NCBI GenBank assembly: GCA_018648685.1
Contig: JABGQT010000107.1
Coordinates: 1-51,851, forward strand
Source of the DNA: Anaerolineae bacterium
GTDB lineage: Bacteria; Chloroflexota; Anaerolineae; Anaerolineales; Villigracilaceae
Direction: 5' to 3'
DNA length: 51,851 bases
The notes beneath the pieces are model-generated. The model ran no database searches, was not told where the DNA came from, and saw only the letters and a program-made list of their open reading frames with translations. A program made the translations under genes and the position numbers. Numbering within the stretch: position 1 is the stretch's first letter; every line of letters begins with the position of its first letter. This document shows, one piece after another, positions 5,250 through 47,785 of the stretch.

Positions 5250-5268
5250 TTTTCAAATTTAACAAAAC

Positions 5269-5327: not shown

Positions 5328-5349
5328 ACTCAAATAAGGAGCAGGCAAA

Positions 5350-7449: not shown

Positions 7450-7471
7450 TACGTGAGAAGAGAGAAGTGAT

Positions 7472-7500
7472 ACCGCCTTTCCCATCGGGGAAGGCGGTTT
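7472..7500 (+). terminator. terminator of the formate dehydrogenase operon
   Basis: ACCGCCTTTCCC (7472-7483) pairs with GGGGAAGGCGGT (7487-7498), one G-T wobble, with a tiny loop, followed by TTTAT. It lies 22 bases after the stop of the catalytic subunit and fits an intrinsic terminator. Confidence 0.65.
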
Positions 7501-7578
7501 ATGTAGAAAAAAGAAATCAGGCAAGAGTAAAGATTCTTGGGAATAGTAATAAATTCCCACCATCGAATCTCTCCTATG

Positions 7579-8313
7579 TTAAGAGCCAATCGCTTCTTCG
7601 TTTTCATTTTCATCTATAAATTCCACCCCTAGTTCATTAAACTGAACATCATCTTCAATCTGTTCTTTCAAAAGATTTGCTTTTTTATATGATCGTATTG
7701 ATAAAATTCCAAAGATAATAGTTACAATTAGACTGAGTGAAATAACCGAGGAGTGGATAGCAACTGCAACAGCATTTTCATCACTATCAGAAGTCAAAGC
7801 CAATAACAAACTAGTAATTGATGCAATACCAGTTCCTAAGAACAAAGTGGCAAATGCCAAATGTGTGTTTACATCGTTTTGCGAATCAACATATTTATGA
7901 GCAAGCCCCGCATCAATTAGTTTAATTTCTGGTCTAAGAACATACATCCTTGGTTCAAGGCTTGATGGTACTTTTCGGAAATTTTCTATTAATGTTTCAC
8001 TCACATTTACAAGTTTTTGCGTACTTTCTTCAATAGATGCAACTAAATTATCATCAGAAGATTCGGACCTTAGTGTTTCAATACTCTTATCTATATTTTG
8101 ACGTATAGAAGTTATTTCGTCTTCTGCTGTATCGGCAACTAGCATTCCCTCTTGAACATCGGTTGGATCAAAGCCACGCTTAATTTTGTATGAACTTTTA
8201 GTCAATGATAAATGCGGCGATATTGGAATGCTTTCTTTTTTCTCCAACTCAGCTTTTATTTCTGCTTTTTTTCTAGCATCACTTGCTTCTTTATTTTTTT
8301 TACTTGATGGCAT
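7579..8313 (-). CDS. unknown protein with two C-terminal membrane segments
   Basis: The 244-residue product has a lysine-rich start, a central helical region (residues about 60-120, possible coiled coil) and two membrane segments near residues 150-175 and 182-205, then an acidic tail. I do not recognise it. Its ATG at 8313 lies inside the end of the preceding gene (14-base overlap), so the two are translated from one message. The gene is clearly more AT-rich than the formate dehydrogenase and U32 genes on either side, as are its two upstream partners, which suggests the three arrived together. Confidence 0.65.
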   Translation of the reverse strand: MPSSKKNKEASDARKKAEIKAELEKKESIPISPHLSLTKSSYKIKRGFDPTDVQEGMLVADTAEDEITSIRQNIDKSIETLRSESSDDNLVASIEESTQKLVNVSETLIENFRKVPSSLEPRMYVLRPEIKLIDAGLAHKYVDSQNDVNTHLAFATLFLGTGIASITSLLLALTSDSDENAVAVAIHSSVISLSLIVTIIFGILSIRSYKKANLLKEQIEDDVQFNELGVEFIDENENEEAIGS

Positions 8314-25182: not shown

Positions 25183-25578
25183 ATGGAACAGAAGTTAAGC
25201 TCAAATTCTAAGCTTGAGATTGAGCTAAAACGCGAACTATCAGCGATAGGGCACGCTATCAGCATAGAATTACTAGATGAATAAGAAGCCAAGGTTATAG
25301 AATATCTCCAAAATATTCAAACCGGTATTAGTGCAATAAACAATACAGCTCCTCGAAACTCTGAGGAACTGCGTGAAGTCTTTTTGATGAAGAAAAAGAT
25401 TGTAGATAGGTTAGTTGAGAAAGTGGCGATTGATCAAGATCGCACACTTCATCTTCATATTCGCCTTAATCTTCTTAGAATTTTAGAAGACGATGCCAAT
25501 AGTAGCGGTTCTATTGAGCCTACGGTACCAACCGAGAAGGTCGGATTTTATACCCGTATACACGGTTTCTACCGCTAG
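25183..25578 (+). pseudogene. remnant of the C-terminal part of a serine recombinase
   Basis: One frame reads LEIELKRELSAI, then an in-frame TAA (25282-25284), then VIEYLQNIQTGIS, EELREVFLMKKKIVDRLVEK and TLHLHIRLNLLRIL. The pattern of a long helix followed by an LVEKVxID...L strand is typical of the end of large serine recombinases. The catalytic N-terminal domain is missing. An ORF of 64 codons from 25384 survives by chance. It lies between the comM relic and the nitrogen-respiration block. The family call rests on pattern similarity alone. Confidence 0.45.
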
Positions 25579-25703: not shown

Positions 25704-28076
25704 TTAGTACTCGTCATTCACCGTGTTATAGACATTGAATTTGCCTGTCGGTGTAATCAAATCAGGGATGCGCGCCAGCTCTTCGAGCGTGGCATCGTCG
25801 TAGACGACAATCTCGCCGGTTTCACCAGGCTTATCTGCACTACCCCAAACACTGATCCAAACTTCGGTTCCTTGTTTATTGTATTCCATGTGGACAGCGC
25901 GTCCGTAGGTTGCAATTTCCCAGCATTTATACACTTCATCTGGGTTAGATTTCGCGATCACACAGACGGTGCGAGACAAGGCAGGCTCAGAATTCAAAGC
26001 CATATCCACCCAAATCCATTCGCTGTTTGGATGTGTCTTGATGAACAAGCTGCCTCCGCTTGGGAGAGGTGTTTCTCGAACAACTTTCCAAGCAGAGTCT
26101 GGGTTCTCTTCCGGGTCGGTGCCGATGGAGCTGATTACAGGATCACCTAGGTGAGATGTGCTCCAGACAGGACCGTATTCAGAGTCAATCCAGTTTGCGC
26201 CACGTCCAGGATGAGGAATAGCAGGTGTATCTACCAGAGCGGTTAGCTCCCCTTCTTGCAGATCGATCACTGCCACTCGGTTTGCCTGATTTGCTGCTAC
26301 CAAGAAATAACGCTTGGATGTATCCAAGCCGCCGTCGTGCAGGAATCGCTCGGCTTCAATCATTTTGATAGTCGGGTTGATGGGGTCAACATAGTTTACC
26401 AGCCAAGCTTGCCCCGTTTCTTTGATGTTGACAACCCACTCAGGCTTATAGTGGGATGCCAAGATACTCGCCACGCGCGGTTCGGGATGATACTCTTCGG
26501 TATCGTAGGTGTAGCTTCGCGTACTAACAATTTTTGTAGGCTCAAGCGTTTGTCCATCCAAAATAGCGAAGTGTGGAGGCCAATAACAACCCACGATGGC
26601 ATATTTGTCCGTGAAATCGCCTTCTTCGCCATGATATTTGCTCACTTCTACTGAACGGGCATCGTAGCAGAGTTTTACTTCGGCAACTTTATCTGGGACT
26701 TCCATCCACAGGTCAACCAAGGCTAGTTTGCCATCACGACCGATAACGTAGGCGTAACGCCCGGTAGCAGACATGCGTGTGATATGAACTGCGTAGCCAG
26801 TATCTACTGTGTTTACAACTTCATAAGTATCACCGTCAATGACGGCTACTTGCCCTGCGTCTCGCAATGTGACAACGAAGTAGTTTTCCCAATCGCGTGT
26901 AGTTTGAGGAGATGCTGGGCGATCTTCTGGCTCAACAAATACTTGCCAAGATGCTTGCATTTGTTCCAGAGACATCTCTGGCGGAATCGGTGGCTCATTT
27001 TGCAAATATTTCGCCATGGTCTCTGTTTCTTCTTCTGTTAGTACACCTTGCTTGCCCCAATCTGGCATACCGCGTGGTGTCCCATTGAAGATGATTGAAG
27101 AGAGTGCCACAGTTCCCATTGATTGAGTTATATCGGGGGTTAGCGCAGGGCCTGTTGCTCCTTTGCGTAAAGTGCCATGACAACCGGCGCAACGGTCAAA
27201 GAAGGTTTGTTTTGCCCAAGAAAACTCTTCGTCGGTGAGCTCTGGGCCTGCACTTATCGCTACGCTGCCATCTTCTGTTTCTGCAGGATCAGCAAGAGCA
27301 CCATCGGGTAGTGCTGCTAGATAATCTATAACTGCTTCAGTTTCCTCATCGCTGAACACACCAGAAAAGGAGGGCATCAAACCTTCTTGGCACGGACCTT
27401 CAGGGCAATCTGGGACAACAAAAGTATTCGGATTCACAAGTGCTTCGTCTAAATACTCTGTTCCGGTCGTTGCATTTCCTGTGTATATTCCATCTTGGAG
27501 ACGAGCATCAGCTATAGTTCCTATTTCAGAAAGATCAGGGCCAAGCGTGCCAACAGCACCAGCAACACCTGGGATGATATGACAGGCTCCGCACCCACCC
27601 TTTTGGAACGCCTGAGCCGCTAGCTCGGCACCATATAAGCCCGGTTCATCCGTGGATGTTTGGCTTGCTTCCCTTATGGGAGCATTTGGTTCGTAAGCAC
27701 GGACAAAATCAACGATAGCATGAATATTTTCGTCAGTTAATGCACCGCCGTAGGCTTGTCCCCATGCAGGCATGGTGGTGTTCGGGCGACCGGTTTGGAT
27801 AGTTGCGAAGAGTACACCATCACTGGCTTCTTCAAGAAGAACTTTATCGTTGAGAGCAGGTCCAACGCCCCCTTCACCTTGCAAACCATGACAAGATACA
27901 CAATTCTCAGCATATAAGACTTGGCCATGATGCAGGCTTTCTTCCTTATGAAGCTCTGTAACATCAACTATGCGAGCATCCTCGCCAACCATCTGGAATG
28001 AGAAGCTAGCGAGGAGCACGAGAGTGATAATCAAGCCAATGAGAAGCTGTTTATTGTAGTTTTCGTTTTTCAGCAT
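25704..28076 (-). CDS. nirS: cytochrome cd1 nitrite reductase with two extra N-terminal cytochrome c domains
   Basis: The 790-residue protein has a membrane anchor (residues about 10-30) and three cytochrome c domains with haem motifs CVSCH (59-63), CGACH (162-166) and CAGCH (296-300). An eight-bladed d1-type propeller follows from about residue 395. The third cytochrome and the propeller match NirS closely: RKGATGPALTPD, TLRDAGQVAVIDGD, DTGYAVH (His431, d1 ligand), YHPEPRV (His530), FLHDGG (His580) and the ending LITPTGKFNVYNT. It reduces nitrite to NO outside the membrane. Known NirS proteins I recall are about 560 residues with one c haem and are soluble. The two added domains and anchor probably replace a cytochrome c1. 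AAGGAG precedes the ATG. Haem d1 synthesis genes are not in the window. Confidence 0.9.
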   Translation of the reverse strand: MLKNENYNKQLLIGLIITLVLLASFSFQMVGEDARIVDVTELHKEESLHHGQVLYAENCVSCHGLQGEGGVGPALNDKVLLEEASDGVLFATIQTGRPNTTMPAWGQAYGGALTDENIHAIVDFVRAYEPNAPIREASQTSTDEPGLYGAELAAQAFQKGGCGACHIIPGVAGAVGTLGPDLSEIGTIADARLQDGIYTGNATTGTEYLDEALVNPNTFVVPDCPEGPCQEGLMPSFSGVFSDEETEAVIDYLAALPDGALADPAETEDGSVAISAGPELTDEEFSWAKQTFFDRCAGCHGTLRKGATGPALTPDITQSMGTVALSSIIFNGTPRGMPDWGKQGVLTEEETETMAKYLQNEPPIPPEMSLEQMQASWQVFVEPEDRPASPQTTRDWENYFVVTLRDAGQVAVIDGDTYEVVNTVDTGYAVHITRMSATGRYAYVIGRDGKLALVDLWMEVPDKVAEVKLCYDARSVEVSKYHGEEGDFTDKYAIVGCYWPPHFAILDGQTLEPTKIVSTRSYTYDTEEYHPEPRVASILASHYKPEWVVNIKETGQAWLVNYVDPINPTIKMIEAERFLHDGGLDTSKRYFLVAANQANRVAVIDLQEGELTALVDTPAIPHPGRGANWIDSEYGPVWSTSHLGDPVISSIGTDPEENPDSAWKVVRETPLPSGGSLFIKTHPNSEWIWVDMALNSEPALSRTVCVIAKSNPDEVYKCWEIATYGRAVHMEYNKQGTEVWISVWGSADKPGETGEIVVYDDATLEELARIPDLITPTGKFNVYNTVNDEY

Positions 28077-28600: not shown

Positions 28601-29365
28601 TTAGAGACCATCAAAGGGGTTGTATCCACCGGGCATTGCCCAGGGCAGGAAGAGTTCAAATCCGGGACCGCGGAACAAGAATCCGGTTAGAGTCAGAACA
28701 ACAGCAGTGAAGAAGAGAACGGTGAACAGAACGAGCATAATCTCTCGCGGGTTTGAGCCTTCTTTAGACTTCCACAAAACAATAGCGGGCAAGATCACCA
28801 GAAGAGCCATCACACCGCCGGGAAGAATGGATTGCGTGACGAGATTAGGCAATACATCACGGAATAATTCACGAGGCGGGAAGGCGTTATCCAAGAGAAC
28901 AAAGCCAGACATCACGATGGTTGTATACAATGCTGTCCAGCCGACGATACGTTTGCCACGCTTTGATGTGAACCAGACCCCTGCTCCCTCACGACTGTAG
29001 TCAATATAAGGGATGGAGATCAGGAAGCCCACAGCAAGGACGGGCAAAATGATGCCTGCGAGTGTTGGGTGCATATGCTCAAGCATTTCCTGCAAGCCCA
29101 TGAAATACCAGGGGGCTTTGGCGGGATCAGTTGTGATCAGGGGATTTGCCAATTCTTCCAGTGGCGCATCTTTCAGTAGTGAGAAGAGCACCAAAAAGAG
29201 TGTAGAGCCCAGGGCAATAATCAGTTCGAGGATTGCCACGATCGGAAAGGCAAAGATCGTATTATCAGGGCCTTTGTCGACCATCGTGGTTGGTGCTTTG
29301 ACGATCTCAACCAAGCTATAGGTCTTTCCTGAGGGTTTGGTGAAGCTTTGCTCTTTATTTGCCAT
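28601..29365 (-). CDS. cytochrome b C-terminal half (subunit IV-like)
   Basis: A 254-residue membrane protein. After a soluble lead of about 35 residues come [17 protein letters not shown], matching the quinol-site PEWY-type region (here PWYF), and helices equivalent to the last part of cytochrome b. About six membrane segments are present, more than in plastid subunit IV. ATG 29365 has GGAGG six bases upstream and lies inside the end of the preceding gene, an 11-base overlap. It pairs with the haem-bearing N-terminal half to make a split cytochrome b, as in b6f and many Gram-positive-type complexes. Confidence 0.85.
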
Positions 29366-30107
29366 CTTCAGCCTCCACTTCGTCTTTAACTTCATTGGCA
29401 GCCAGACCGCCATCTTTGCGTACGCGCCAGATATGAAGCGCGATCAGCAGGAATAAGACAGCCGGAACGACCATAATATGCAGGGCATAGAAGCGGGTGA
29501 GTGCAGCTTGCCCTACTTCAGGCCCACCGAGGAGCAACTTTTGGATGGTCTTGCCCATCAATGGTTCATAGGCCGCGACACTAGTGCCGACTGTGATTGC
29601 CCAGAAAGCGAGTTGGTCCCAGGGGAGTAGATAGCCAGTGAAACTGCCGACAAAGGTCATGATGAGCAGGATCACACCGATCACCCAGTTGAACTCGCGT
29701 GGGGGTTTGTAGGCCCCGGTATAAAAGACACGTGCCATATGCAAAATTGCAGTAAGCACCATCATATGTGCACCCCAGCGGTGCATATTGCGCAATAATT
29801 GCCCAAAAGGCACTTTTGTTTGGAGTGTGACGATGTCGAAGTAAGCTGTTTCTACAGAAGGCACATAGTAGAACATCAGCATGATGCCAGTTAGGGAAAG
29901 CAGGATGTACATCACAGTTGTGATAATCCCTAATCCCATGGAGTAGCTGGCTTTGATACTCTTCTTATTCACGCGCACAGGGTGCAGGTGGAAGAAGATA
30001 TTCGTGGTCATGATCAGGGAGCGATCCAGTGGGTTATCTGGCCAGCCATGGCGGAAGAAGGACTTCCACGGGCGGGAGTTGAGAATAAATTCTTTAAGTT
30101 TTTTCAT
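29355..30107 (-). CDS. cytochrome b N-terminal half (b6-like)
   Basis: The 250-residue protein has four membrane helices that bind two b haems: histidines in [10 protein letters not shown] and in ILHMARVF, and in [10 protein letters not shown] and [20 protein letters not shown] and [13 protein letters not shown] are the standard quinol-site sequences. The first 50 residues form an extra cytoplasmic lead. GGAG stands before the ATG. Together with the following C-terminal half and the Rieske protein it forms a menaquinol-oxidising complex. A cytochrome c1 or f gene is missing. Confidence 0.9.
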
Positions 30108-30117
30108 AGTTGCTCCG

Positions 30118-32196
30118 TTATTTCTTGTCTACAAAAGATAAAACTTCTTCAAAACGAAATGCTTCCATTGTGATCGCGTCGGTGGGGCAGCGGTCGGCAC
30201 ATAGCGCACAACGGGTGCAAGATTCGTCATCTTTAAGCATTGCTGCCATTTGGCTTGTAATATTGTGGTTTTCAGTAATCTCGTTCAGCGGGACGCCAGT
30301 ATGCTCTTCAATAACTCTGTGAAGAGTCTCATCACCAGCGATCTTGTCGAGGCTGACGATCTTCAGACAATCCCAGGGACAAACATCCACGCAGCCGTTG
30401 CATAGGATGCACAAGCTACCATCAAAAATGGTGTTGACACTACATTCAAGACAACGACTCCCTTGCTCTGCGGCTTCTTCTTCTGTGTACCCTAATTCGA
30501 CCACAGAGATGCCCGTACGTCGGCCTACTGGAAGGTTGGGGGATTTGTGATTTTTCAGCTTTACCCAATTCTCAAACATGACGTGGTTTGCAAGTACTGT
30601 CCACTCGGTTTTGACTTCCATATCGAGTTTCTTGGCTTGAAGATATTCTTCAATACCAAGAGCTGCCAAATGTCCATGCCGCACAGCATCAATAATCAGC
30701 TTGGGGCCGTATGCCACATCGCCACCTGCGAAGACATCTGGGGCAGTAGTTTGACCTGTTTCGTAATTGATCTCCACTAAACCGCGCGATGAAAGTTTCA
30801 CATCATCTGCACCACCGAGCACGTCAAGATCAGCCTGCTGACCAATAGCCAGGATAACGGTATCGCAATCCCAAATACGTTCAGAATCCGTCTTAAACTT
30901 GGGACTGAAACGTCCGTCTTCGTCAAAAACAGATTCGACATCAATCACTTCCAGACCGCTGACTTTTCCATCTTCTCCGATAATCCGTTTCGGGCCCACA
31001 CGTGGGGAGAGTTGAATTCCCTCCTCTAACGCTTCTTCAACTTCAAAATCGGATGCGGGTAATTCATCCCAATCTTCTAGCGAAATCATTTTGACATCTG
31101 CAACGCCCAAACGAAGTGCTACGCGAGCTACGTCCAACGCGGTGCTAACGGTTTCAGATTCTTCTTCAGCACGTGCTTCGGTATCATCCAAAGCAGCTTG
31201 TTGCTCATCGGTCAGTTGCCCTAAACGCAAAGCTGTACGAGCGGCATCCATTGCTACATCGCCACCGCCAATGACCAGTACTCGCTTGCCAAGATCGACT
31301 TTGTATCCAAGGTTGTAATTGAGCAACATATCTACTGCGATGATGACGCCATCAAGGTCGGAGCCTTCAATATCTAGAGAACGACCTTTCATCAAGCCAA
31401 TGCCCAAAAAGACCGCATCGTAGTCACGGCGTAAATCATCGAGAGTGATTTTTTCGCCAATAGGCGTATCAAAATGAATTTCAACGCCAAGGTCAAGAAT
31501 CTCCTGAATTTCCAAATCCATCGCTTCTTGATCGATACGATAAACAGGCACACCGTAGCGCAACATACCACCAGTTTTGGGACCGGCTTCGTATATCGTG
31601 ACTTTATATCGCAACAAGGTCAGATCATGAGCAACCGTTAAGCTGGCAGGCCCCGCACCAATGATCGCAACATTGCCTTTTTTGCGCCCAGGTTGTGAAG
31701 CTAAACGCATCAACTCTTTTCGCGACCAGCGTACCGTTGAGTAGGGAAAAGATGTCCCCGTCCCCGGTACCGTGGCTTTCTTGCCAACTCTATGAAGATT
31801 GGCAGAGAAAGTTGAGAGACCGGTATCTGGGAGAATATCCGCTAAGGGAATCAATTTCTCTGACCCAGCTCGATCGGGCACAATTTTTCCAGCTTCTGGC
31901 CCAAATCGTTCGGTTAGGACGCGTTTAATGGGGCGGATAGCAACAGGTTTTGCATCAGGCCCAACAATATCGCTACGACGACAGGCAACTTCACAAGGTG
32001 CACCACAAATGCGACCACATATTGTCGAGAGGGGATTTGGATCGTGGGAAATCTCAAAGCCTAATCCTATTTCTCCACGTGCCATGGCCGTAACATAACC
32101 GCGTGAATCTGTATTCACGGGGCAGCCAGCCTGGCATTTAATCATATCTCTCCAATCATCAATATTAGGAATTTTCACTTGAAATTTTTTATTCAT
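30118..32196 (-). CDS. NAD(P)H-binding flavin/iron-sulfur oxidoreductase (GltD-like) with C-terminal ferredoxin
   Basis: In this 692-residue protein the N-terminal [4Fe-4S] region has CQAGCPV and [13 protein letters not shown] (residues about 22-72). An FAD site [15 protein letters not shown] (about 176-190) and an NAD(P) site [19 protein letters not shown] (about 305) follow, as in the small subunit of glutamate synthase. The C-terminal 110 residues hold [20 protein letters not shown] and [14 protein letters not shown], giving two ferredoxin clusters. No glutamate synthase large subunit is present. It lies 10 bases before cytochrome b, so it probably exchanges electrons between NAD(P)H and the Rieske/cytochrome b complex. 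Similar subunits accompany some bc complexes of anammox bacteria. AAGGAA precedes the ATG. Confidence 0.82.
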
Positions 32197-32246: not shown

Positions 32247-32897
32247 TCAAATGCCCTGAGTAGTTATTTCTTGTTTTTCTGTACCATCAGCGAGTAGCAA
32301 CTCTGCAAGAAGATCGCTAGACGATACAGCTTGGTAATAAGTTGGGCTTGCACAAGCTCGGCATAAAACACGATTTCCCTGAACAACTTCCCGCTCATTA
32401 ATAATCTCTTCGCCGCAGTCATCACAATTGACACGCACACCTGCACGACTGACAATCGTTTCAACAGGTGTTGTTAGCACCACTTCTTCAATGGAGAGTA
32501 GTTCTTCAGTTGGCATCTCTTGGTAGCCCTTCAGCATTGCGTAATAGCGACGTTTTTCGTCAGGGGCATAATCTCGGGCACGTTGGCGCACATCCAGGCG
32601 AGGTGCTACACGCACAGCTTCTCCAGTTTTTACGTTGATAAAAGTAGCGGCTATTTTGCCGTAATCTTCTACGCGGAGTGTTCTATGATTAACACCACAT
32701 CCCGTAACAGTTTCAACACCAGAGACAAAGCAGCCATCTGTTTCAACGATCACAAGTAGCCGTTTATCGCTTCGGGGTACATCCATGTTGAGGGCAGCCG
32801 CGCCAGCCAAACCCACACGCGAACCCAGCACTTGTCGAGGACATAAAGATTTATGCCGAGATGCTGATTCAGCTAGAATTTCTTCAAGAATATCCAT
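32247..32897 (-). CDS. FmdE-family protein with C-terminal zinc ribbon
   Basis: The 216-residue protein matches the FmdE family: LCPRQVLGSRVGLAGAAALN and VIVETDGCFVSGVETVTGCG in the first 85 residues. A C-terminal ribbon (residues about 157-185) has CDDCGEEI and CRACASP. FmdE was named from molybdenum formylmethanofuran dehydrogenase operons and occurs beside other molybdenum enzymes. Its biochemical role is unclear, but handling of the metal or cofactor is suspected. Here it sits in the nitrate reductase region, which fits. Its ATG directly follows the stop of the narK gene with no spacer. Confidence 0.75.
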   Translation of the reverse strand: MDILEEILAESASRHKSLCPRQVLGSRVGLAGAAALNMDVPRSDKRLLVIVETDGCFVSGVETVTGCGVNHRTLRVEDYGKIAATFINVKTGEAVRVAPRLDVRQRARDYAPDEKRRYYAMLKGYQEMPTEELLSIEEVVLTTPVETIVSRAGVRVNCDDCGEEIINEREVVQGNRVLCRACASPTYYQAVSSSDLLAELLLADGTEKQEITTQGI

Positions 32898-34424
32898 TTA
32901 GCACTCGATTTCTGCACCTTTTCGGGCATAGTAATACCAGTTGAGAATTAAGCAGGTGAAGTAGTAAATTGCAAATCCATAGAGGGCGTATTCAGGTGTT
33001 CCTGCATTTACTTGTTGACCAAAAACTCTGGGGATGATGAACGCACCATAAGCGGCAACTGCTGCTGTCCAACCCAAAACGGGACCTGCTTCTGAGGGTT
33101 TGAAGATGATGGGGACCATTCTGAAGGTAGAGCCATTGCCGATGCCAGTGGTGATGAAGAGGATCAGGAAAAGAATCAGGAAGGGGATGAAAAACTGCTC
33201 AGGTTGGCTGGATGCACTGGCTTGCTTGACATAATAAGCAACGCCCAACGCCGATAAAATCATCACAACCGTATCCCATTGGGTGATTTTTGCGCCACCG
33301 ACTTTGTCAGAAATCCAGCCACCAATCGGGCGAGCGAGAGAGCCAACTAGCGGTCCAAGCCAGGCATAGGCAAAGGGATTGGGGGCATTGGGGTTGATGC
33401 TGCCATCAGGGAGTTCCCCGAAAACAACACGAATAAGCAAGGGGAAGGCGGCAGAGTACCCGATGAAAGAGCCGAAGGTCATTGTGTAGAGATAAGTCAT
33501 AATCCAATTATGCTTATTTTTGAAAATCGCAAACTGAACTTCAAGATTGGATTTAATTTCACCCGGAAGAGCCTTCATCATAAAGACAGTGGCAACAATT
33601 GTTATGGGTAAAACAAGCCACATATTGAGTTCTAGCCCGAGCAAAAGATAAAGCCCAATCGTAGCACCTGCGCCCCCAACCCCGATCAGACCTAAAATTT
33701 TCAGCAACGCTGATGAAGTTGAACCAAGATTTGGCGTAGCGGTTGAGAGATTATTCATCCCAAACCAGGCAGCTAAAGCAAGTACGAGCAAAATGGGCAC
33801 CCACACAAAACCAGCGTTTTGGATATAAGACATCCCGCCATTTACAGATAATCCTTCACCGCCCAATGCGCCGAAGAGTCCGAAAGTTACAACAAAGGGA
33901 ATCAAAACTTGCATTACGCTCACGCCGATATTGCCAAGCCCGGCATTCAAGCCCAGAGACATCCCTTGCATCCGTTTCGGGAAGAAGAAATTGATATTAG
34001 ACATCGACGAAGAGAAATTTCCACCGCCCAAGCCAGAGAGGGCAGCCAAAACAGCAAAGGTCGTAAAGGGGGTGTTAATGTCTTGTAACGCAAATCCCAA
34101 TCCTAACGCTGGAGCAATGAGTAAAGCGGTTGTTAGCGCAACCACATTTCTGCCGCCTGCAATCGCAATCAAGAAGGAGTTTGGAATACGAAGTGTGGCC
34201 CCCGACAAGCCAGCAATTGCTGATAAGGTGAATAATTGCACTGTGTCAAAGGGGAATCCCATATTTTTCATCTGGACGGTCACAACACTCCAGCAGAGCC
34301 AAACGGCAAAAGAAACTAATAAGCTGGGGATGGAAATCCAGAGATTGCGATTAGCAATCTTTTTTCCCGTTGAATTCCAGAAACCCTCGTCTTCAACGTC
34401 CCATTTTTCAATATAACTTGACAT
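32898..34424 (-). CDS. narK: nitrate/nitrite transporter, NarK type
   Basis: A 508-residue MFS protein with 12 membrane segments. It carries the nitrate signatures GLGGGNFSSSMSNINFFFP and, in the second half, TGIGNGSTFRMVP, plus the conserved arginine (RIPNSF) that contacts the anion in known NarK structures. The type resembles E. coli NarK, which exchanges nitrate for nitrite. AAGGAG stands before the ATG. Upstream lies a second transporter of the other NarK subtype. A pair of two subtypes is usual in denitrifiers: one brings in the first nitrate with protons, the other exchanges it for nitrite. Confidence 0.88.
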   Translation of the reverse strand: MSSYIEKWDVEDEGFWNSTGKKIANRNLWISIPSLLVSFAVWLCWSVVTVQMKNMGFPFDTVQLFTLSAIAGLSGATLRIPNSFLIAIAGGRNVVALTTALLIAPALGLGFALQDINTPFTTFAVLAALSGLGGGNFSSSMSNINFFFPKRMQGMSLGLNAGLGNIGVSVMQVLIPFVVTFGLFGALGGEGLSVNGGMSYIQNAGFVWVPILLVLALAAWFGMNNLSTATPNLGSTSSALLKILGLIGVGGAGATIGLYLLLGLELNMWLVLPITIVATVFMMKALPGEIKSNLEVQFAIFKNKHNWIMTYLYTMTFGSFIGYSAAFPLLIRVVFGELPDGSINPNAPNPFAYAWLGPLVGSLARPIGGWISDKVGGAKITQWDTVVMILSALGVAYYVKQASASSQPEQFFIPFLILFLILFITTGIGNGSTFRMVPIIFKPSEAGPVLGWTAAVAAYGAFIIPRVFGQQVNAGTPEYALYGFAIYYFTCLILNWYYYARKGAEIEC

Positions 34425-36350: not shown

Positions 36351-37034
36351 TTACTTTGTGGCTTTACGGTCTCTCATCCCGATCACGATTTGCCATGGGC
36401 GGATCAAGTAATCCAGAGGCCAGGAAAGGATGTGAATCAAGCGTGAAAAGGGAAGCAACGCCAGCAGGGCAAAGTTGTTGAAGACGTGTAATTGGATTAA
36501 CCAAGGGAGTGGAGCTACCAACTCGGGGCAGGGTTGCAAGGTTAAGATCGACCATAAATAGGGGGTGAATACGCCTGTGAACCAGACCGAACCGAAGCGG
36601 TAAAGGGAGGCTGTGAGTACACCTGTAAGCATGGAGATCAGTGTTAGCAGGAGAACAAGAATATCTATTCGTGTTGTGACTGCTTTTACATATGGCACTG
36701 TTAGTCGTCGCCAAAAGAGGAATACTACGCCAACCAATGCCCATAACCCTAGAATAAAACCGCTAATTTCCAGCAGGTATAAACGCAGAGGAACTGCGTT
36801 CCAAAGCAAAAGGACTTTTGGGGTAAGGAGGGCTACCAAGTGAAAAAGAAGTATCCACAATACGCCATGATGAAAGGGGATTGAGCCCCAGTAGAGTTGC
36901 TTGCGCTCAAGTAGTTGGGATGACAAACTTGAAACGGTGAAGGGGCGGTAAACTACTCGATAGATCGTTACCGCGATAAAGAGGGTGAGTGAAATGTAGG
37001 GAAAAACAACAAAGAGAAATTGGTTCCAGTCCAT
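36351..37034 (-). CDS. narI: respiratory nitrate reductase gamma subunit
   Basis: A 227-residue membrane protein with five helices. Histidines for two b haems are in FHHGVLWILLFH (about residues 55-65) and in LHVFNNFALL...SRLIHILS, the latter pair 18 residues apart as in E. coli NarI. It oxidises menaquinol on the outer side and passes electrons to NarH. GGAG lies before the ATG. The gene follows narJ by 25 bases in the standard GHJI order. Confidence 0.9.
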   Translation of the reverse strand: MDWNQFLFVVFPYISLTLFIAVTIYRVVYRPFTVSSLSSQLLERKQLYWGSIPFHHGVLWILLFHLVALLTPKVLLLWNAVPLRLYLLEISGFILGLWALVGVVFLFWRRLTVPYVKAVTTRIDILVLLLTLISMLTGVLTASLYRFGSVWFTGVFTPYLWSILTLQPCPELVAPLPWLIQLHVFNNFALLALLPFSRLIHILSWPLDYLIRPWQIVIGMRDRKATK

Positions 37035-37059
37035 AATCTATTCTCCGAAAATTCTCAAT

Positions 37060-37575
37060 TTACGCTGTGCCTGATGCGTCGACTTGTAAAGACTTGGATT
37101 CTGTGCCTATTGCATCAAATAAGAGCAAATAGGGGTTATCTTTTTCTGTCTTTTTCAGCGAACTGTGCATCGCTTTGATCGCCTTTTCAAGGACTTCAAT
37201 TAGCTCAGGTAGTGGCGAGGATGAAATGCTCAGGTATTGCAAGATCGGGCGCAAATGGTCAGGCAACTCACCTTCTAAATCAATTTCGTGTGTTTTCAAC
37301 TCGCTATTAAGTGCTGCCATAAACTCGCCGCGTTTATAGCTTTCGCCCCAAATTTGGTAGCCAACATAAGGGGCTGCCAAAGGGCTAAGGTCTAGGGTGC
37401 GAGTGAATAACTCTTCTTGTTCACTGAGCGAAAGCGATTCGACCTTTGCCAAAAAATCAGCAAAAATTTTGTTTCCAAGCTGACCATTCAGCTTGGAAAC
37501 TTTTGTGTAGAGTGCATTAACTTGCCCGGGATGTGGGTAGCGCAAGGCTTCTGCCATTAGTAATAAGGTGTCCAT
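37060..37575 (-). CDS. narJ: nitrate reductase assembly chaperone
   Basis: A 171-residue, mostly helical protein starting MDTLLLMAEALRYPHPG, typical of NarJ/TorD chaperones, with LSPLAAPYVGYQIWGE in the middle as in other NarJ proteins. It inserts the molybdenum cofactor into NarG and helps membrane attachment. Its ATG overlaps the narH stop by one base (TAATG), so translation is coupled. The identification is helped strongly by position between narH and narI. Confidence 0.88.
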   Translation of the reverse strand: MDTLLLMAEALRYPHPGQVNALYTKVSKLNGQLGNKIFADFLAKVESLSLSEQEELFTRTLDLSPLAAPYVGYQIWGESYKRGEFMAALNSELKTHEIDLEGELPDHLRPILQYLSISSSPLPELIEVLEKAIKAMHSSLKKTEKDNPYLLLFDAIGTESKSLQVDASGTA

Positions 37576-39083
37576 TACTCACCCCTCTTCGGTTGCTGTA
37601 TATAGCCCAGACCAACTTCGCCTTTATGGGTTAGAGGATCTAATATGGCTTTAATGCTCATCTCACGGTGATAATTCGGGAAGACAAAGCGTTCTTCCAT
37701 TGTGGGCAGAGTCGTCATTTTGTACATATCAATGGCTTGTTCTTCGGTGAGACCGGCTTCTGCGAGTGTTTTGCGAGAGACGCTATCCACTTTGCCATGA
37801 ACGGTCTTGCGGCGCATATAAATACGAACAGCCAGCAATTTGCGTAGTACAGTGCGGATAGTGCCTTCATCACCTGCTGAAAATAAATTCGCCAGATATT
37901 TGATGGGGAGACGAGCAGCATCAAGACGATCAAATAGCTCGAAATCGTAATCTTCTTGCATCAGGTCAAGACGGAAGAGACTCTTCTCTGTCACACTGAC
38001 CACAGGAGACAAGGGTGGGATGTAATACATCATCACCATTGTGCGGAATTCAGGATGCAGTGGGAGTGCGATTTCCCATTCTTTGACAAATTTATACGCG
38101 GGGGAGTTCTGAGCAGATTCGATCCAGTCATCACCGATGCCATTTTCTTTTGCAGCAGCAATCACTTTGGGATCAAAGGGATCAAGGATCATTTCTCGAT
38201 GTGCAGCAATCAACTCATCATCAGGAACATTAGCGGCTGTGGGAATTTGGTCTGCATCATAGAGCAACACGCCCATATAACGAATGCGTCCAACGCAAGA
38301 GTGAGCGCAGGCGGGAGCTTGTCCCGTTTCCATACGAGGGAAGCAGAGAATACACTTCTCGGATTTACCCGTATTCCAGTTGTAATACACTTTTTTGTAG
38401 GGGCAGGCGGCAACGCACATGCGCCAGGCTCTACAATCATTTTCATTTACCAGAACAACACCATCTTCATCACGTTTATAAATTGCACCGGAGGGGCAAG
38501 CCGCTACACAAGCAGGGTTGAGGCAGTGATTACAAATACGTGGCAGATAATTGAAAACCAATCGCTCCAGTTCGTTCATTTGCTCCCGAACTTCTTGAGG
38601 GAGGTCTTCCAAATTAACATCATTTTTAGCGTAGATATTCGACCCACCAAGGTCATCGTCCCAGTTTGGACCCGTTTCAATATCAATGGGGTCGCCTGTA
38701 ATCATAGAGATAGGTTCAGCAATCGGCTGAACATCTTTTTTCGGGGAATTGAATAGATTCTGATAATCAAAGGTGAAGGGTTCGTAATAATCTCTTAAAC
38801 CGGGGAGACTAGGGTTATAAAATAATTTAAAGATCCCCTCGAGGCGAGTATGTAGCTTCAGATCGAGTTTGCCCTTCTTTCTCTCCCAACCCCCACGGAA
38901 GTGTTCTTGATTCTCCCATTGGGTAGGAAATCCCGTTCCAGGGCGGGTTTCTACGTTATTCCACCACATATATTCGGCACCTTTGCGGTCTGTCCATAAG
39001 TTTTTACAGGCTACCGAACAGGTGTGACAACCGATACATTTATCAAGATGGAAAATCATACTCATGTGTGTTCGTACATCCAT
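37575..39083 (-). CDS. narH: respiratory nitrate reductase beta subunit
   Basis: The 502-residue protein has four cysteine groups for iron-sulfur clusters: CIGCHTCSVACK (residues about 16-27), CNHCLNPACVAACPSG, CRAWRMCVAACPYKK and CILCFPR...CAHSC. The tryptophan in CRAWRMC marks the [3Fe-4S] cluster as in other NarH proteins. It carries electrons from NarI to NarG at the cytoplasmic face. GGAG precedes the ATG. The spacer from narG is 271 bases and holds a repeat, unlike the tight spacing elsewhere in this operon. Confidence 0.93.
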   Translation of the reverse strand: MDVRTHMSMIFHLDKCIGCHTCSVACKNLWTDRKGAEYMWWNNVETRPGTGFPTQWENQEHFRGGWERKKGKLDLKLHTRLEGIFKLFYNPSLPGLRDYYEPFTFDYQNLFNSPKKDVQPIAEPISMITGDPIDIETGPNWDDDLGGSNIYAKNDVNLEDLPQEVREQMNELERLVFNYLPRICNHCLNPACVAACPSGAIYKRDEDGVVLVNENDCRAWRMCVAACPYKKVYYNWNTGKSEKCILCFPRMETGQAPACAHSCVGRIRYMGVLLYDADQIPTAANVPDDELIAAHREMILDPFDPKVIAAAKENGIGDDWIESAQNSPAYKFVKEWEIALPLHPEFRTMVMMYYIPPLSPVVSVTEKSLFRLDLMQEDYDFELFDRLDAARLPIKYLANLFSAGDEGTIRTVLRKLLAVRIYMRRKTVHGKVDSVSRKTLAEAGLTEEQAIDMYKMTTLPTMEERFVFPNYHREMSIKAILDPLTHKGEVGLGYIQQPKRGE

Positions 39084-39184
39084 AAGTGGCTCCTTTATTC
39101 TGCTGAAAGTATCCTCTCAATATCATCGAGGGGATAGATTTCCGAAGTTTGCCGTGCTTTTCTATTAGCAATTTGACGATTGAC

Positions 39185-39332
39185 CGCGACGCTCGTGTAC
39201 TTCGACTCGGCTCAGTACGTGTTTTAGGCTTGAGTGCCGAGACCTAAGCTGGGTGCCTGGCGTGAGCAAAAATATGTTTACGTCGAGAAAATGCTGACTT
39301 TCGGCACCCAAGTTTGGCTCAGGTTCGTCGCG
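39185..39332. repeat. nested inverted repeat in the narG-narH spacer
   Basis: CGCGACG (39185-39191) pairs with CGTCGCG (39326-39332). Inside, TGGGTGCC (39250-39257) pairs with GGCACCCA (39303-39310), while GTGCCGA (39234-39240) can pair with the overlapping TCGGCAC (39301-39307). GTACTTCGACTCGGCTCAGTAC recalls the core of the GIY-YIG-associated repeats. An ORF crosses the element but looks non-coding. The whole spacer between the two genes (39084-39354) has no other feature. Confidence 0.55.
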
Positions 39333-39354
39333 AAGATTTTTATCCAAAGATCTC

Positions 39355-42300
39355 CTAGAAATCTGGTTTATCAATCCTGCGTACAAAGACAAATGTGTCT
39401 CGATTTACACCAGTGGGTCCCCAATAATTGAAGGAATAGGAGAACTGGGCATAACCGCCAGACATCAGCACAGGTTTGAGGCGAGCGCGAGTCATAGAGT
39501 TATTCATGCCGGCTCGTTTATTTCCACGCAATTTCGATTTTGGAATACCTATCGTGCGCTCAGTGGCGTGATAGACAAAAACCGTTCCACTGGGGATACG
39601 AGCAGAAACAATGGCTCGCTGTACGAAAACGCCATTATCGTTGAAAAGTTCGACCCAATCGTTATCTTTGATTCCCATTTCGGCGGCATCTTTGGTGTTT
39701 AGCCAAACAGGATAATTACCTCGTGAAAGGGTCATCATGCGATGATTATCAGAATAGGTTGAGTGGATGCTCCATTTGCCATGCGGGGTAATATAGTTGA
39801 GCATCTTGCCTTGCGCTTCTGCCATACTGCGTTCAGTTTCATCGAGCATGGTGTGATCGGGGCGTGGTTTGTAAACAGGGAGATGTTCACCCCAATCGAG
39901 ATAACCCTCGTGGTCGAGATAGAAGTGTTGTCGGCCTGTTAGTGTGCGCCAAGGAACCATGCGTTCTACATTGAGGGTAAATGGCGAGTATGCACGCCCT
40001 TTATTAATTAATCCAGACCAGGTTGGGGTTGTTAGGACGCGGCGTGGTTGAGCAATAATATCTGAGAAAGAGATGCGGGTTGAGCGTGTGCCTTCTGCCA
40101 AGTCGGTGAGGGAGAGCCCCGTTTTCTTTTCTTCTGCCACAAAAGCGCGATGAGCTAACTCTCCATTGGAGGCTGGGTCTAAGCGCAGAATAGTCTCACA
40201 GACTTGTCGTCCATATTCCAGGGAGGGGAAAACTTCTCCTTTTATCGGCTTGTCTTTATCAAAAGTTCTAGGTTGCTGGCGTTTAAGATAGTCATATTCA
40301 TCAGCTACTTCAATACGAATCCCGTGTGCGGCAACACCATTTTTCTCTACACCTTTGCCCAAGCTGACAAAACGTTCGCCTATTTTTGTGTAATCCCTTT
40401 CAACCACCTTGAAATGGGGCATGGTTTTTCCGGGGATAGGCTCAACATCGCCTTTTTGCCAATCCACTACTTGGGGTTGAGCGATTTCATCGGGCGTATC
40501 GTGTTTGAGCGGTAGCATAACTACATCCTTGATAGGTTCAGGAATGTGTTCTTCAGATAATTCGCTCACTTTGCGGGATAGGGTTTTGAAAATATCCCAA
40601 TCACTCTTCGCTTCCCAAGCAGGTTTTACAGCAGCTTGCATAGGGTTGATAAAAGTGTGCATATCAGTTGTGTTGAGATCGTCTTTTTCGTACCAGGAAG
40701 CAGCAGGCAAGACAATATCAGAATAAAGAGCAGATGTATCCATACGGAAGTTGAGGTCTACCACCAAATCCATTTTGCCTTCAGGGGCGTCTTTGTAGTG
40801 AACTTCATTGGTGTTTCCTAAAGCCTGTTCTGTGGCAATAGCGGTACTATGTGTTCCCAGATAGTGCTTCATGAAAAACTCATGCCCTTTCGCGCTGGTT
40901 CCGATGGCATTACCTCGCCAAATCACCCAAACACGGGGCCAGCTTTCAGGGGCGTCGGGATCTTCAACGGCTAAGCGAATCTTCTTTTCTTTGAATTGAT
41001 CTACAACATAATCCACAACCTCTGCGTCGGTTTTAGCACCATTCTCCATAGCATCTATCACGACATCAATTGAGTTGCGTTTGAATTGCGGGAAGAAAGG
41101 TAACCATCCTCGCCGTACCGCGCGAATCTGGTGATCTATCGTGTGATCCTTTGCAGGTTTATTGGGCAACTCATCATAGGCGGTATAGCCACGCTCATAA
41201 CGCCACTGATCGCTATGCACATAATGGAAGGAAGGCGTATTTTGGTGCCGAGGTGCCATTCCCCAATCGGTTGCAAAGGCGATTGATGCCCAGGAACCTA
41301 CGTTGACGAGTTTCTCTTGCCCTACATAGTGAGCCAAGCCACCGCCGTTCACACCCACGCTCCCTGTCAACATCAAGGCAACAATAGATGAGCGGTATAG
41401 CAGGTTATTGTGATACCAATGATTTGCACCAGCACCAATGATGACCATATTCTTGCCATTGGTCATTTCACCATTTGTAGCCCACTCACGCGCATAGCGG
41501 ATACAAGTATCCTGATGGATACCAGTGTATTTTTCTTGCCAAGCTGGGGTATAAACGCCTTCGGCATCATCATAGTTTTCTGGGTAAGCACCGCTAAAGC
41601 CACGGTCAACGCCAAATTGCGCCATCACAAGATCAAACACGGTCGTTACGGCAACGCGTCCATCTTCGGTTTCGATATAACGTATGGGAACACCACGCGC
41701 GTTTGTCGTCCTGGAGGAGAAATCGTCAAATTCAAGTTCAACAACTCCATCGTGGGTATCAGCAAAACTCAATTTAGGGGCGATCTCTTCATCTGTTACG
41801 CCATCTTTTGGCTCAAGATTCCATTTACCTTGTTCTTTTTCACCCCAGCGGAAACCGATCGTGCCTTTGGGCATGCGTGCGCGCCCACTCTTCTCATCCC
41901 AAATAAGCAGTTTCCAGTCACCGTGTTCAGCATCTTTATACTCGCCGACACGGTTGGCTCGTATATATTTGCCCGGTCTGTTTTCATTGATCTCGATCAA
42001 GAAGGGCATATCGGTATATTGCTTGAGATAGTCAACGAAATAGGGAACTTGCTTCTGAACATAGAATTCGGTCAAAATCACATGATTGACCGCCATCCAG
42101 AAAGCAGTATCCTGCCCGGCATGGACGGGGATCCAATAATCAGCATATTTCGCAACTTGCGAGAAATCGGGGGCAAAAACGGTCAACTTCCCACCAGCAT
42201 GACGTACTTCTGAGATGAAGTGAGTGTCAGGCGTACGAGTCATATTCAGGTTTGCACCGATCACTGCCACAAAACGTGAATTGAACCAATCTGCAGATTC

Positions 42301-42969
42301 GTGAACATCGGTTTGTTCACCCCAAATTTCAGGGCTGGCTGGGGGAAGGTCACAATACCAGTCGTAGAAACTCATAATTACGCCGCCCATCAAGCTCATA
42401 AAGCGGCTTCCGGCAGCGTAACTGATCTGCGACATAGCTGGGATTGGCGAAAATCCAGCTATTCGGTCTGGACCATATTTCTTTGTGGTGTGAACCATTG
42501 ATGCAGCAATCATTTCTTGAGATTCTTCCCAAGAGATACGTCTGAATCCCCCCTTGCCGCGTGCTTGTTGATAACTCTTACGAGCTTCTTCATCATCCAT
42601 AATGGAAGCCCAAGCCTTAACAGGGTCTCCATGAATAGATTTGGCTTTGCGCCAAAGGTCTACTAATACGCCACGAGCATAAGGATATTTGACCCGAATG
42701 GGGCTATAAAGATACCAAGAGTAGCTGATGCCACGCTGGCAACCACGTGGCTCGTAAGGTGGCAAACCTTCTTCTAACTGTGGGTAATCTGTAGCCTGCA
42801 TTTCCCAAGTGACAATGCCATCTTTGACAAATACTTCCCAGGAACAACTGCCTGTACAGTTTACGCCATGGGTGGTGCGTACTCGCTTATCGTGTTGATG
42901 ACGATTGCGATAGAACTCTTCCCATTTACGTTCAGTGGGTGAAATTTTTTCTTTAGACCAGTTTTTCAT
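39355..42969 (-). CDS. narG: respiratory nitrate reductase alpha subunit
   Basis: The 1204-residue molybdenum enzyme reduces nitrate to nitrite. [12 protein letters not shown] gives the His34/Cys38/Cys42 ligands of the FS0 cluster; [19 protein letters not shown] (about residue 200) contains the aspartate that binds molybdenum in NarG. The sequence follows E. coli NarG throughout. The N-terminus has no twin-arginine signal, so the active site faces the cytoplasm, in line with the two nitrate transporters. AAGGAGG stands before the ATG, which overlaps the upstream cytochrome stop (ATGA). Cofactor biosynthesis genes are not nearby. Confidence 0.95.
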
Positions 42970-43850
42970 GAGTGCCTCCTTGAAGTAATTCCTGCATCTC
43001 TTCTCAAGCGATCAGATAGAGTTTCCCGTTGACGAGGCCAGTAGAACGCCATAATGCCAAATAATATGCCAGAGCCCAAAAGCCCAATTATCCAGAATGT
43101 CGTTGTCGCACTATCGGCAACGCCCTCTTCGCCTTCTGCGTCAACGGTTGCAAAGAAAGTTAGCAAATCTGCAATTTCCTGATCTGTGAGAGCTTTATCT
43201 ACATAAATACCCTGCATAGTAGGAAATGCAATATCTTTGATTACACCGGTTAACCCTGCTTCCCCAAAACGTCCATAAACACGGGTCAAATCAGGTCCCA
43301 AATTGCCGCCACCAAAGGGACCAACACTTCCTACAGTATGGCAGGCAATACAAGGTGTGCCTCCATTTTCAAGGACATCTTCACCAGTAAAAAATGCGCT
43401 ACCTCGATCAAGATTCCCTTCAGGGAGGGGAGCATCAGCAACTGGCGCTACACTTTCGCCACCCTCAAGGAAGACCAAGAGAGCTTCAACTTCTGCTTCA
43501 GTAAGACCCAAATTTGGCATTGGAATATTATTAAATTCAGTCAGCAACTCGAGAGCAATTGGATCTCCAGACACGATTATTTGATCGGGTATGGTTATGA
43601 AATCCCTTACCCAATCTCGATCACGTCGGTCAAGAACCCCTTCCAAGTCGGGCCCAACTAATGAACCTTCGCCTATTGAATGACAAGATACGCAATTCTT
43701 TTCAAAAATGTCTTTCCCCTCGTCAGAAGACTGAAATCCGGGTGATGCCGCAGCCTGAAAAAATGACCCTATCAACAAAACTCCACTCAATAACAGAATC
43801 ACAAAAGATCTACCACCTACTGAGTTCCAGATCTTATGTTTGACTTCCAT
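42966..43850 (-). CDS. membrane dihaem cytochrome c, NarC-like
   Basis: The 294-residue protein has an N-terminal membrane segment or signal (about residues 15-35), two cytochrome c domains with CVSCH and CIACH, and a C-terminal membrane helix (about 255-277) with a basic tail. A dihaem cytochrome c, NarC, precedes narGHJI in Thermus, where it serves nitrate respiration. Position and build match. It would face outside and could link the bc complex with NarGHI or NirS. I use ATG 43850, with GGAGGAG six bases upstream; an ATG at 43865 overlaps that site. Confidence 0.82.
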
Positions 43851-43872
43851 AGGATGCTCCTCCATAAATTAA

Positions 43873-47655: not shown

Positions 47656-47785
47656 ATATAAATGGATGGTATTTTGATGGTTGTTGTGCACAACATAATC
47701 ATGTTACATCCAAAAACGTACGCTGGGCTTTCCAAAAAAAGTTACGTCACCAGAAAGCAAGAGCTATTCATTAACTTCTTCACTC

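What the first reader, a model, noticed from the sequence alone, without database searches (positions are those of the whole stretch)
25704..28076. NirS with three cytochrome c domains and a membrane anchor
The sequence shows three CxxCH motifs at residues 59-63, 162-166 and 296-300 ahead of a complete d1 propeller with the expected histidines. The NirS proteins I know have one c haem and are soluble periplasmic enzymes. Fusion would wire nitrite reduction directly to a membrane electron donor. I cannot verify whether this architecture has been described.
Basis: partly seen in the sequence, partly recalled or inferred. Interest (0 to 1): 0.75.

Follow-up and report, generated by a model that had tools for sequence, protein, structure and literature searches.

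The report
Nitrite reductase fused to respiratory complex
In an uncultured Chloroflexota bacterium, the enzyme that turns nitrite into nitric oxide is joined in one protein to the electron-output subunit of a quinol-oxidising membrane complex, which suggests a direct nitrite-respiring machine and offers a way to test an idea proposed for anammox bacteria.

Summary
In detail: 25704-28076(-) is one intact 790-aa frame with an N-terminal hydrophobic helix, three CxxCH cytochrome c domains (C0, C1, C2) and a complete d1 propeller with the expected histidines. It is not an assembly join: four genomes of one genus carry it (81-85% identity to the window) and form one NirS clade. Part is known: C1-C2-NirS was described in Chloroflexi in 2022. 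The new part is C0 plus the anchor, which match the N-terminal third of the tri-haem cytochrome c of an NAD(P)-oxidoreductase/Rieske/cytochrome b operon; an unfused paralogue lies on another contig of the same genome. In the window that operon ends in the fusion, 9 bp after the Rieske gene. Best reading: the complex's output cytochrome was replaced by a nitrite reductase, giving a covalent quinol:nitrite oxidoreductase (Rieske-C0-C1-C2-d1). The complex is homologous to Kuenenia complexes proposed to couple NAD(P)+ reduction to nitrite reduction. Against a simple story: no recognised sirohaem decarboxylase (NirDLGH) or NirF was found in the genus, and one of the four genomes keeps the fusion beside decayed bc genes. 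No electron transfer has been measured.

The parts
25704..28076 (-). Fused nitrite reductase, 790 aa: anchor-C0-C1-C2-d1 (NirS)
   Evidence: full-length orthologues in 3 other genomes
27999..28058 (-). Predicted N-terminal membrane anchor, about residues 7-26, no lipobox cysteine
   Evidence: hydropathy; no lipobox in the 3 fused orthologues; homologous to the N-terminus of the tri-haem subunit
27672..27971 (-). C0 cytochrome c domain, about residues 36-135, CxxCH 59-63 at 27888-27902; homologous to the first domain of the bc-operon tri-haem cytochrome c
   Evidence: residues 1-133 are 75% identical to own-genome C184 tri-haem protein; C0 tree
27291..27629 (-). C1 cytochrome c domain, about residues 150-262, CxxCH 162-166 at 27579-27593; Chloroflexi NirS C1
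26967..27245 (-). C2 cytochrome c domain, about residues 278-370, CxxCH 296-300 at 27177-27191; canonical NirS c domain
25722..26894 (-). d1-haem propeller with H431, H580, H622
   Evidence: PF02239 432.5 bits
28086..28583 (-). Rieske iron-sulfur protein; best PDB match 9rk4 (Kuste4569)
28601..29413 (-). Cytochrome b C-terminal part / subunit IV-like
   Evidence: PF00032 just over cut-off; 38% identical over about 144 residues to the Brocadiaceae L217 counterpart
29355..30107 (-). b6-like cytochrome b; contains no cysteine, so no covalent haem cN expected
30118..32196 (-). NAD(P)-FAD-FeS oxidoreductase (Nfn/GltD-like), putative cytoplasmic arm
32247..34424 (-). FmdE-like protein and MFS/NarK-like transporter, contiguous upstream genes of the same run
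   Evidence: gaps 50 and 0 bp
36351..42969 (-). narGHI region with a small ORF in the narJ position: would supply nitrite
   Evidence: NarI PF02665, NarH TIGR01660 over cut-off, molybdopterin subunit; the narJ-position ORF has no Pfam hit
25345..25372 (-). Terminator-like hairpin about 330 bp after the nirS stop
   Evidence: consensus scan only (17 found in the region, 12.1 expected, sd 3.5)

Best explanation
This is a gene fusion in which the anchor and first haem domain (C0) of the terminal cytochrome c subunit of an NAD(P)-oxidoreductase/Rieske/cytochrome b complex were joined to a Chloroflexi C1-C2-NirS nitrite reductase, replacing that NirS's lipoprotein-like N-terminus. It most likely works as a covalent quinol:nitrite oxidoreductase: menaquinol is oxidised at cytochrome b, the high-potential electron passes Rieske to C0 to C1 to C2 to d1, and nitrite is reduced to NO outside the membrane. 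Shown here: the fusion, the homology of its parts, the gene order, conserved ligands, purifying selection and recurrence in four genomes. Inferred: the direction of the fusion, the order of electron transfer, complex formation and catalysis. More speculative: that the low-potential electron goes to NAD(P)+ through the Nfn-like subunit.
For: Same-genome control: contig C184 carries the paralogous row NADox-cyt b-subunit IV-Rieske-tri-haem c with no d1; fusion residues 1-133 are 75% identical to that protein. The unfused order NADox-b-IV-Rieske-TRI-FLP holds in 8 of 8 loci examined, which are all the unfused C0 hits listed, with three CxxCH in each TRI. The fused order NADox-b-IV-Rieske-NirS holds in the window, L049 and L050. 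Two family members, G455 and G457, hold an unfused C1-C2-NirS and an unfused bc row on different contigs, the expected pre-fusion state; near the NirS of L052 (d1 identical to that of G457) NarI-, NarK- and FmdE-like genes stand as in the window but without bc genes. Gaps in the window run are 10, -59, 17 and 9 bp. C0 of the genus is split from the other five at 100/100, the three fused C0 rows group at 90/94 (L048 not in that tree). The four fused NirS are one clade at 99.9. dN/dS is about 0.02-0.21 in the 23 of 30 segment comparisons where dS could be computed. In L048, whose adjacent bc genes are decayed, C0+C1 changed more than in the window (36 v 12 unique changes with L049 as outgroup, 39 v 7 with L050), C2+d1 did not (5 v 10, 9 v 6); Fisher p 0.005, 0.067, and 0.09 when both outgroups must agree.
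Against: One of four genomes (L048) keeps an intact fusion beside decayed bc genes, so another donor must be possible there. No recognised NirDLGH, no NirJ over cut-off, and nothing but NirS over the PF02239 cut-off in the genus leave the d1 cofactor unexplained. The structure model gives no confidence for C0 and little for C1. The bc gene tree does not separate the fused operons from the unfused L198 one. The relative-rate test was exploratory and only one of three versions is under 0.05. No expression or biochemical data exist here. In the 8 unfused operons a FlpD-type gene follows the cytochrome; it is missing from the fused ones, so the complex may have changed in other ways.
Confidence: 0.75

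Rival explanations
1. Ordinary Chloroflexi C1-C2-NirS with a spare relay and a new anchor: C0 simply provides membrane attachment and accepts electrons from any cytochrome outside the membrane; neighbouring bc genes are bystanders.
For: In L048 the adjacent bc genes are decayed while the fusion is intact with all three CxxCH. Unfused relatives do without C0 and already look like lipoproteins.
Against: C0 is homologous to the N-terminus of this bc operon's own output subunit and sits in its place in 3 of 4 fused genomes. C0/C1 change faster where bc decayed (modest significance).
Confidence: 0.12
2. Not a working nitrite reductase in the usual sense: without the known d1 pathway the propeller carries another haem or a scavenged cofactor, and the protein does something else (NO chemistry, sensing or electron storage).
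For: PF17805 (NirDLGH) over cut-off in 0 of 9 genus genomes (5 with NirS) and 0 of 10 other C1-C2-NirS genomes, while the same search rings in Pseudomonas (4), Dechloromonas (4) and a Brocadiaceae genome (2). Only NirS is over the PF02239 cut-off in the genus.
Against: The three active-site histidines are kept, the C2 and d1 parts have the lowest dN, and the gene lies near nar genes and NarK-like transporters. An unrecognised d1 route is equally possible.
Confidence: 0.12
3. Assembly or gene-calling artefact joining a bc cytochrome gene to nirS.
For: Single MAG contig; C0 has a 73-75% identical paralogue elsewhere in the same genome.
Against: Same fusion, same junction and 81-85% identity in three other assemblies with different accession prefixes; no frame break.
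Confidence: 0.01

Closest known systems
Chloroflexi C1-C2-NirS (Schwartz et al. 2022, PMC8756737; results, an appendix part and passages read)
   Same: Same C1-C2-d1 core, about 67-75% identical; same phylum; d1 histidines kept
   Different: No C0; lipobox-like N-terminus; the two neighbourhoods described in most detail lack other denitrification genes; the words Rieske and bc1 occur 0 times in that paper's main text
Kuenenia R/b complexes Kuste4569-4574 and Kustd1480-1485 (Hauser et al. 2025, PMC12954380; passages read)
   Same: b6-like cyt b, subunit IV, Rieske (best PDB match of our Rieske is 9rk4 = Kuste4569), multi-haem c and an NAD(P) oxidoreductase; nitrite-to-NO proposed as the high-potential reaction
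   Different: There the putative nitrite reductase is a separate HAO-like octahaem protein (Kuste4574), whose activity lacks experimental evidence (PMC12485887, passages); here it is a cd1-type enzyme, covalently fused. Our cyt b lacks the cysteine seen in the Brocadiaceae homologue L217
Canonical cd1 nitrite reductase NirS (P. aeruginosa 1nir/5guw family)
   Same: C2 and d1 align end to end with conserved ligands
   Different: One c haem (71 of 80 related loci have one CxxCH ahead of d1); soluble periplasmic (recalled)
Actinobacterial QcrC di-haem cytochrome c of bc1
   Same: Membrane-anchored multi-domain c subunit of a bc complex; weak match over residues 16-184 (55.8 bits, under the cut-off of 200)
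   Different: Feeds a haem-copper oxidase (recalled), is not fused to a reductase; the match is below cut-off
Unfused tri-haem cytochrome c of the same operon type (G000:C184 and 7 other loci)
   Same: Anchor and C0 homologous; same upstream genes
   Different: Distal haem domains instead of C1-C2-d1; followed by a cyt b/FeS/FlpD gene that the fused operons lack

Membership tests
cd1 nitrite reductase (NirS) | c-haem domain with His/Met ligands followed by complete d1 propeller | tested here: met
cd1 nitrite reductase (NirS) | three active-site histidines (P. aeruginosa 182/327/369) | tested here: met
   H431, H580, H622 by the alignment; invariant in 12 of 12
cd1 nitrite reductase (NirS) | genome encodes known d1-haem biosynthesis (NirF, NirDLGH, NirJ) | tested here: not met
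   0 of 9 genus genomes over cut-off for PF17805 and TIGR04051; only NirS over cut-off for PF02239. Genomes are incomplete MAGs; only the PF17805 search had a denitrifier control. A genome feature, not one of the protein
cd1 nitrite reductase (NirS) | reduces nitrite to NO | not testable with these tools
   needs biochemistry
Chloroflexi C1-C2-NirS | C1 and C2 c domains ahead of d1, Chloroflexi clade | tested here: met
   lies inside the Chloroflexi clade of the NirS tree
Chloroflexi C1-C2-NirS | two c domains and a lipoprotein-like N-terminus (the latter is this report's observation on unfused members) | tested here: not met
   three CxxCH; no lipobox-like motif in 3 of 3 fused orthologues v 37 of 37 unfused loci with one
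NAD(P)-linked Rieske/cyt b complex (Kuste4569 type) | b6-like cyt b + subunit IV + Rieske + NAD(P)-FeS oxidoreductase in one cluster | tested here: met
   window operon; homologous cluster in Brocadiaceae L217 (cyt b 48%, NADox 32% at 7e-84, subunit IV 38%, Rieske 44% over about 68 residues)
NAD(P)-linked Rieske/cyt b complex (Kuste4569 type) | haem cN in cyt b, as modelled for Kuenenia | tested here: not met
   no cysteine in window cytbN, against WCMGG in L217; that this cysteine holds haem cN is recalled from cyt b6
NAD(P)-linked Rieske/cyt b complex (Kuste4569 type) | NAD(P)H production driven by nitrite reduction | not testable with these tools
   a proposal even in Kuenenia

The most novel reading that the evidence does not exclude
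One membrane complex splits the two electrons of menaquinol: one goes through Rieske-C0-C1-C2-d1 to make NO from nitrite, the other through cyt b and the Nfn-like subunit to reduce NAD(P)+. Nitrite respiration would then directly pay for NAD(P)H, with a cd1 reductase covalently locked onto the bifurcating complex, possibly loaded with a d1 haem made by an unknown route.
Probability: 0.3. Interest if true: 0.9.

Novelty: new variant of a known kind. Interest (0 to 1): 0.7.

Why it matters
If true, it is a natural covalent link between a Rieske/cytochrome b complex and a denitrification enzyme, two parts usually thought to meet through mobile carriers (recalled). It gives an independent case for the idea, untested at the enzyme level in anammox bacteria, that NAD(P)-linked Rieske/cyt b complexes use nitrite-to-NO reduction as their high-potential reaction. 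The host genus includes a genome titled Candidatus Desulfolinea nitratireducens, listed among sulfate reducers of suboxic waters in a review that analyses Black Sea genomes (passages), where nitrite and NO matter. The apparent lack of recognised d1-haem genes in NirS-carrying genomes of this clade raises a second, separately testable question.

Tried and rejected
Assembly artefact: rejected (four genomes). Haem-haem distances from a structure model: not possible, C0/C1 were predicted with low confidence from the 12-row alignment given, of which 4 rows hold C0; no fold search was run and the second folding job was not used. NirJ-like hits in a hemB-rSAM-hemE row (L175, L176; 105 and 104 bits against a cut-off of 515; a third, L174, 111 bits) looked like ordinary haem synthesis and were set aside; no NirJ-positive control was run. 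Extra PF02239 hits in the 10 other genomes could have been NirF, so I looked: the two G005 proteins tested are YVTN/YncE-type propellers (NCBIfam beta_rpt_yvtn 3e-49 and 3e-55; for the one compared with the PDB, best match a surface layer protein 1.4e-52, NirF 4.7e-7), the two G483 stretches fetched hold proteins that begin almost identically to them by eye, and the weak G431 hit is a WD40 protein. The hits G055:C31, G216:C12 and G483:C1:2472279 were not resolved. The bc concatenated tree did not resolve fused against unfused operons within the genus; only the C0 and NirS trees did. A first count took H642 for the third active-site histidine; counting along one search gives H622 (both invariant). 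PF02239 was not run on a NirF-positive genome; PF17805 had denitrifier controls. NirE was not searched. In one search, 50 loci chosen from those fetched were used, not all; near-identical duplicates were kept.

Full report
WHAT IS THERE. The frame at 25704-28076(-) encodes 790 aa with no break. Haem c motifs begin at residues 59, 162 and 296. Pfam finds cytochrome c domains and a complete d1 propeller, and residues 272-790 align with crystal structures of cd1 nitrite reductase at about 1e-186. Counted along that alignment, H431, H580 and H622 correspond to P. aeruginosa 182, 327 and 369 and H300/M337 to 51/88; all are invariant in the 12 proteins aligned. A hydrophobic stretch near residues 7-26 is the predicted anchor.

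IS THE FUSION REAL AND HOW COMMON. In a draw of 400 genomes of the phylum, 10 (the own genome included) had a match at 1e-60; only the own one reaches residue 1, the other nine align from residue 131-152 on. In 152 genomes of the family, 62 had some match at 1e-25 and 4 the full 1-790 match: the window and three of the same genus at 85, 84 and 81%. The GTDB contig scan returns three full matches of the same identities with names: JADGEO010000028.1, JABGOQ010000108.1 and JACNJN010000119.1, the last titled Candidatus Desulfolinea nitratireducens; I take them to be the same three genomes. Of the 80 loci kept from that scan (140 relatives found), 71 have one CxxCH ahead of d1 in the same frame, 5 two, 3 three, and 1 none, the Anaerolinea thermolimosa record whose frame is split there. 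In a tree of 50 NirS rows (46 different) the four fused forms are one clade, SH-aLRT 99.9.

WHERE THE EXTRA DOMAIN COMES FROM. A second match in the same genome, contig C184, covers only residues 1-139. It belongs to a 400-aa tri-haem cytochrome c that ends the row NADox-cyt b-subunit IV-Rieske-cytochrome. The same row, followed by a cyt b/FeS/FlpD gene, is present in 8 of 8 loci examined, i.e. all the unfused C0 hits, and each tri-haem protein has three CxxCH. The window has the same row (gaps 10, -59, 17 and 9 bp), but the last gene is the fusion and the FlpD-type gene is absent. L049 and L050 show the same fused row. The C0 rows of the genus (3 fused, 3 unfused) are split from five family rows at 100/100, the fused three group at 90/94. 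The unfused C1-C2-NirS proteins start with a lipobox-like motif in 37 of 37 loci, and 0 of 37 have a CxxCH upstream of C1. G455 and G457 carry both parts unfused on different contigs. Near the unfused NirS of L052, NarI-, NarK- and FmdE-like genes stand in the order of the window, without bc genes. The simplest reading is that a lipoprotein-like NirS near nar genes was joined, once, to the anchor and first haem of a bc-complex cytochrome.

A NATURAL EXPERIMENT. In L048 the neighbouring Rieske gene has an internal deletion and a frame shift, the subunit IV gene a frame shift and two stops, and no match to the cyt b N-part or NADox is found on the 13.2-kb locus; its Rieske no longer shows the paired cluster motif. 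Yet the fusion is intact. Two cyt b genes of other types (45% and 40% identical) are in that genome. Compared with the window, the L048 protein has more unique changes in C0+C1 (36 v 12 with L049 as outgroup, 39 v 7 with L050) but not in C2+d1 (5 v 10, 9 v 6); Fisher p = 0.005 and 0.067, and 0.09 when both outgroups must agree. This is what one expects if C0/C1 face the bc complex, but the test was exploratory, and the data cut both ways: the fusion is kept without intact bc genes beside it.

MECHANISM. The Rieske protein's best PDB match is 9rk4, Kuste4569 of Kuenenia (9.9e-20). The NAD(P) subunit's best matches are 9n5u (NfnA, 5.1e-73) and 9bov/9bp5 (7.5e-72); 9bp5, an NfnABC structure, is one of the two entries that Hauser et al. 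used to place clusters in the Kuenenia NAD(P) reductases. A Brocadiaceae genome has the homologous cluster Rieske-cyt b-NADox-subunit IV. Hauser et al. 2025 (passages read) restate the proposal that such complexes drive NAD(P)+ reduction with nitrite-to-NO reduction and give 450 mV gained against 250 mV needed. A 2025 Kuenenia study says evidence for the activity of Kuste4574, the nitrite-reducing candidate, is lacking (passages read). In the window the high-potential end is a cd1-type reductase in the same chain. I therefore hold quinol:nitrite oxidoreductase as most likely (0.75) and NAD(P)+-coupled bifurcation as possible (0.3). The window cyt b has no cysteine for haem cN, unlike the Brocadiaceae homologue, so the low-potential branch may differ.

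THE COFACTOR PROBLEM. Sirohaem decarboxylase (PF17805) is over cut-off in 0 of 9 genus genomes, 5 of which carry NirS (one sub-threshold hit in G426), and in 0 of 10 other C1-C2-NirS genomes, though the same search finds it in Pseudomonas, Dechloromonas and a Brocadiaceae genome; A. thermolimosa also has none. Only NirS is over the PF02239 cut-off in the genus. Some of the 10 other genomes have further PF02239 hits, several over the cut-off; the two tested are YVTN-type propellers rather than NirF, three others were not resolved. No NirJ over cut-off (no positive control). Either d1 is made by an unrecognised route, is acquired, or the propeller holds another haem. A 2026 paper's title assigns the keto groups of d1 to NirF and NirC (PMC13168839, search listing only), which sharpens the question.

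WHAT IS KNOWN. C1-C2-NirS: Schwartz et al. 2022 (results, part of an appendix and passages read). Its place in a NirS phylogeny: PMC10999283 (passages). I found no report of the C0 fusion or of a NirS joined to a Rieske/cyt b subunit in searches, which cover open-licence papers only and of which I saw listings and the passages named. The dysoxic-waters review (PMC8359478, passages) names D. nitratireducens; nirS is not named in the passages I saw.

Noticed in passing
G000:C184 (L013) 5761-7770(-) and 7 other loci: A protein with a cytochrome b N-part, 4Fe-4S clusters and FlpD follows the tri-haem cytochrome in all 8 unfused operons: an unusual Rieske/b complex with an NAD(P) subunit and a second FeS arm.
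   Followed up: partly
L053, L029, L006, L026 and others: By eye, 14 of 37 unfused C1-C2-NirS loci have an extra non-haem domain of about 130 aa (cupredoxin-like by eye; no Pfam hit in the one tested) between the lipobox and C1: the NirS N-terminus is repeatedly remodelled in this clade.
   Followed up: partly
9 genus genomes (5 with NirS) and 10 other C1-C2-NirS genomes: No recognised NirDLGH, and no confirmed NirF, in carriers of C1-C2-NirS.
   Followed up: partly
window 49086-51758(-): 890-aa protein with a weak match to the TPR-CHAT protein Csx29 model (1.2e-13, 50.8 bits, below the cut-off of 300).
   Followed up: no
window 47175-47735(-): 186-aa ORF matching only the C-terminal third of the YifB model (TIGR00368 positions 344-499): probable gene fragment.
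   Followed up: no
window 42966-43865(-): Two-CxxCH cytochrome c overlapping the narG start by 4 bp, NarC-like in position.
   Followed up: no
window 2840-7449(+): NuoEF-like fusion, 2Fe-2S/4Fe-4S subunit and molybdopterin oxidoreductase in a row: looks like an NAD-linked formate dehydrogenase or similar.
   Followed up: no
L058 7881-10366: The nirS of Anaerolinea thermolimosa is split into two overlapping frames in this record.
   Followed up: no
L221 (G483): A YVTN-type propeller lipoprotein stands upstream of a multicopper-oxidase domain protein (Cu-oxidase_3 4.8e-40), so this NirS genome may also carry a copper enzyme such as NirK.
   Followed up: no
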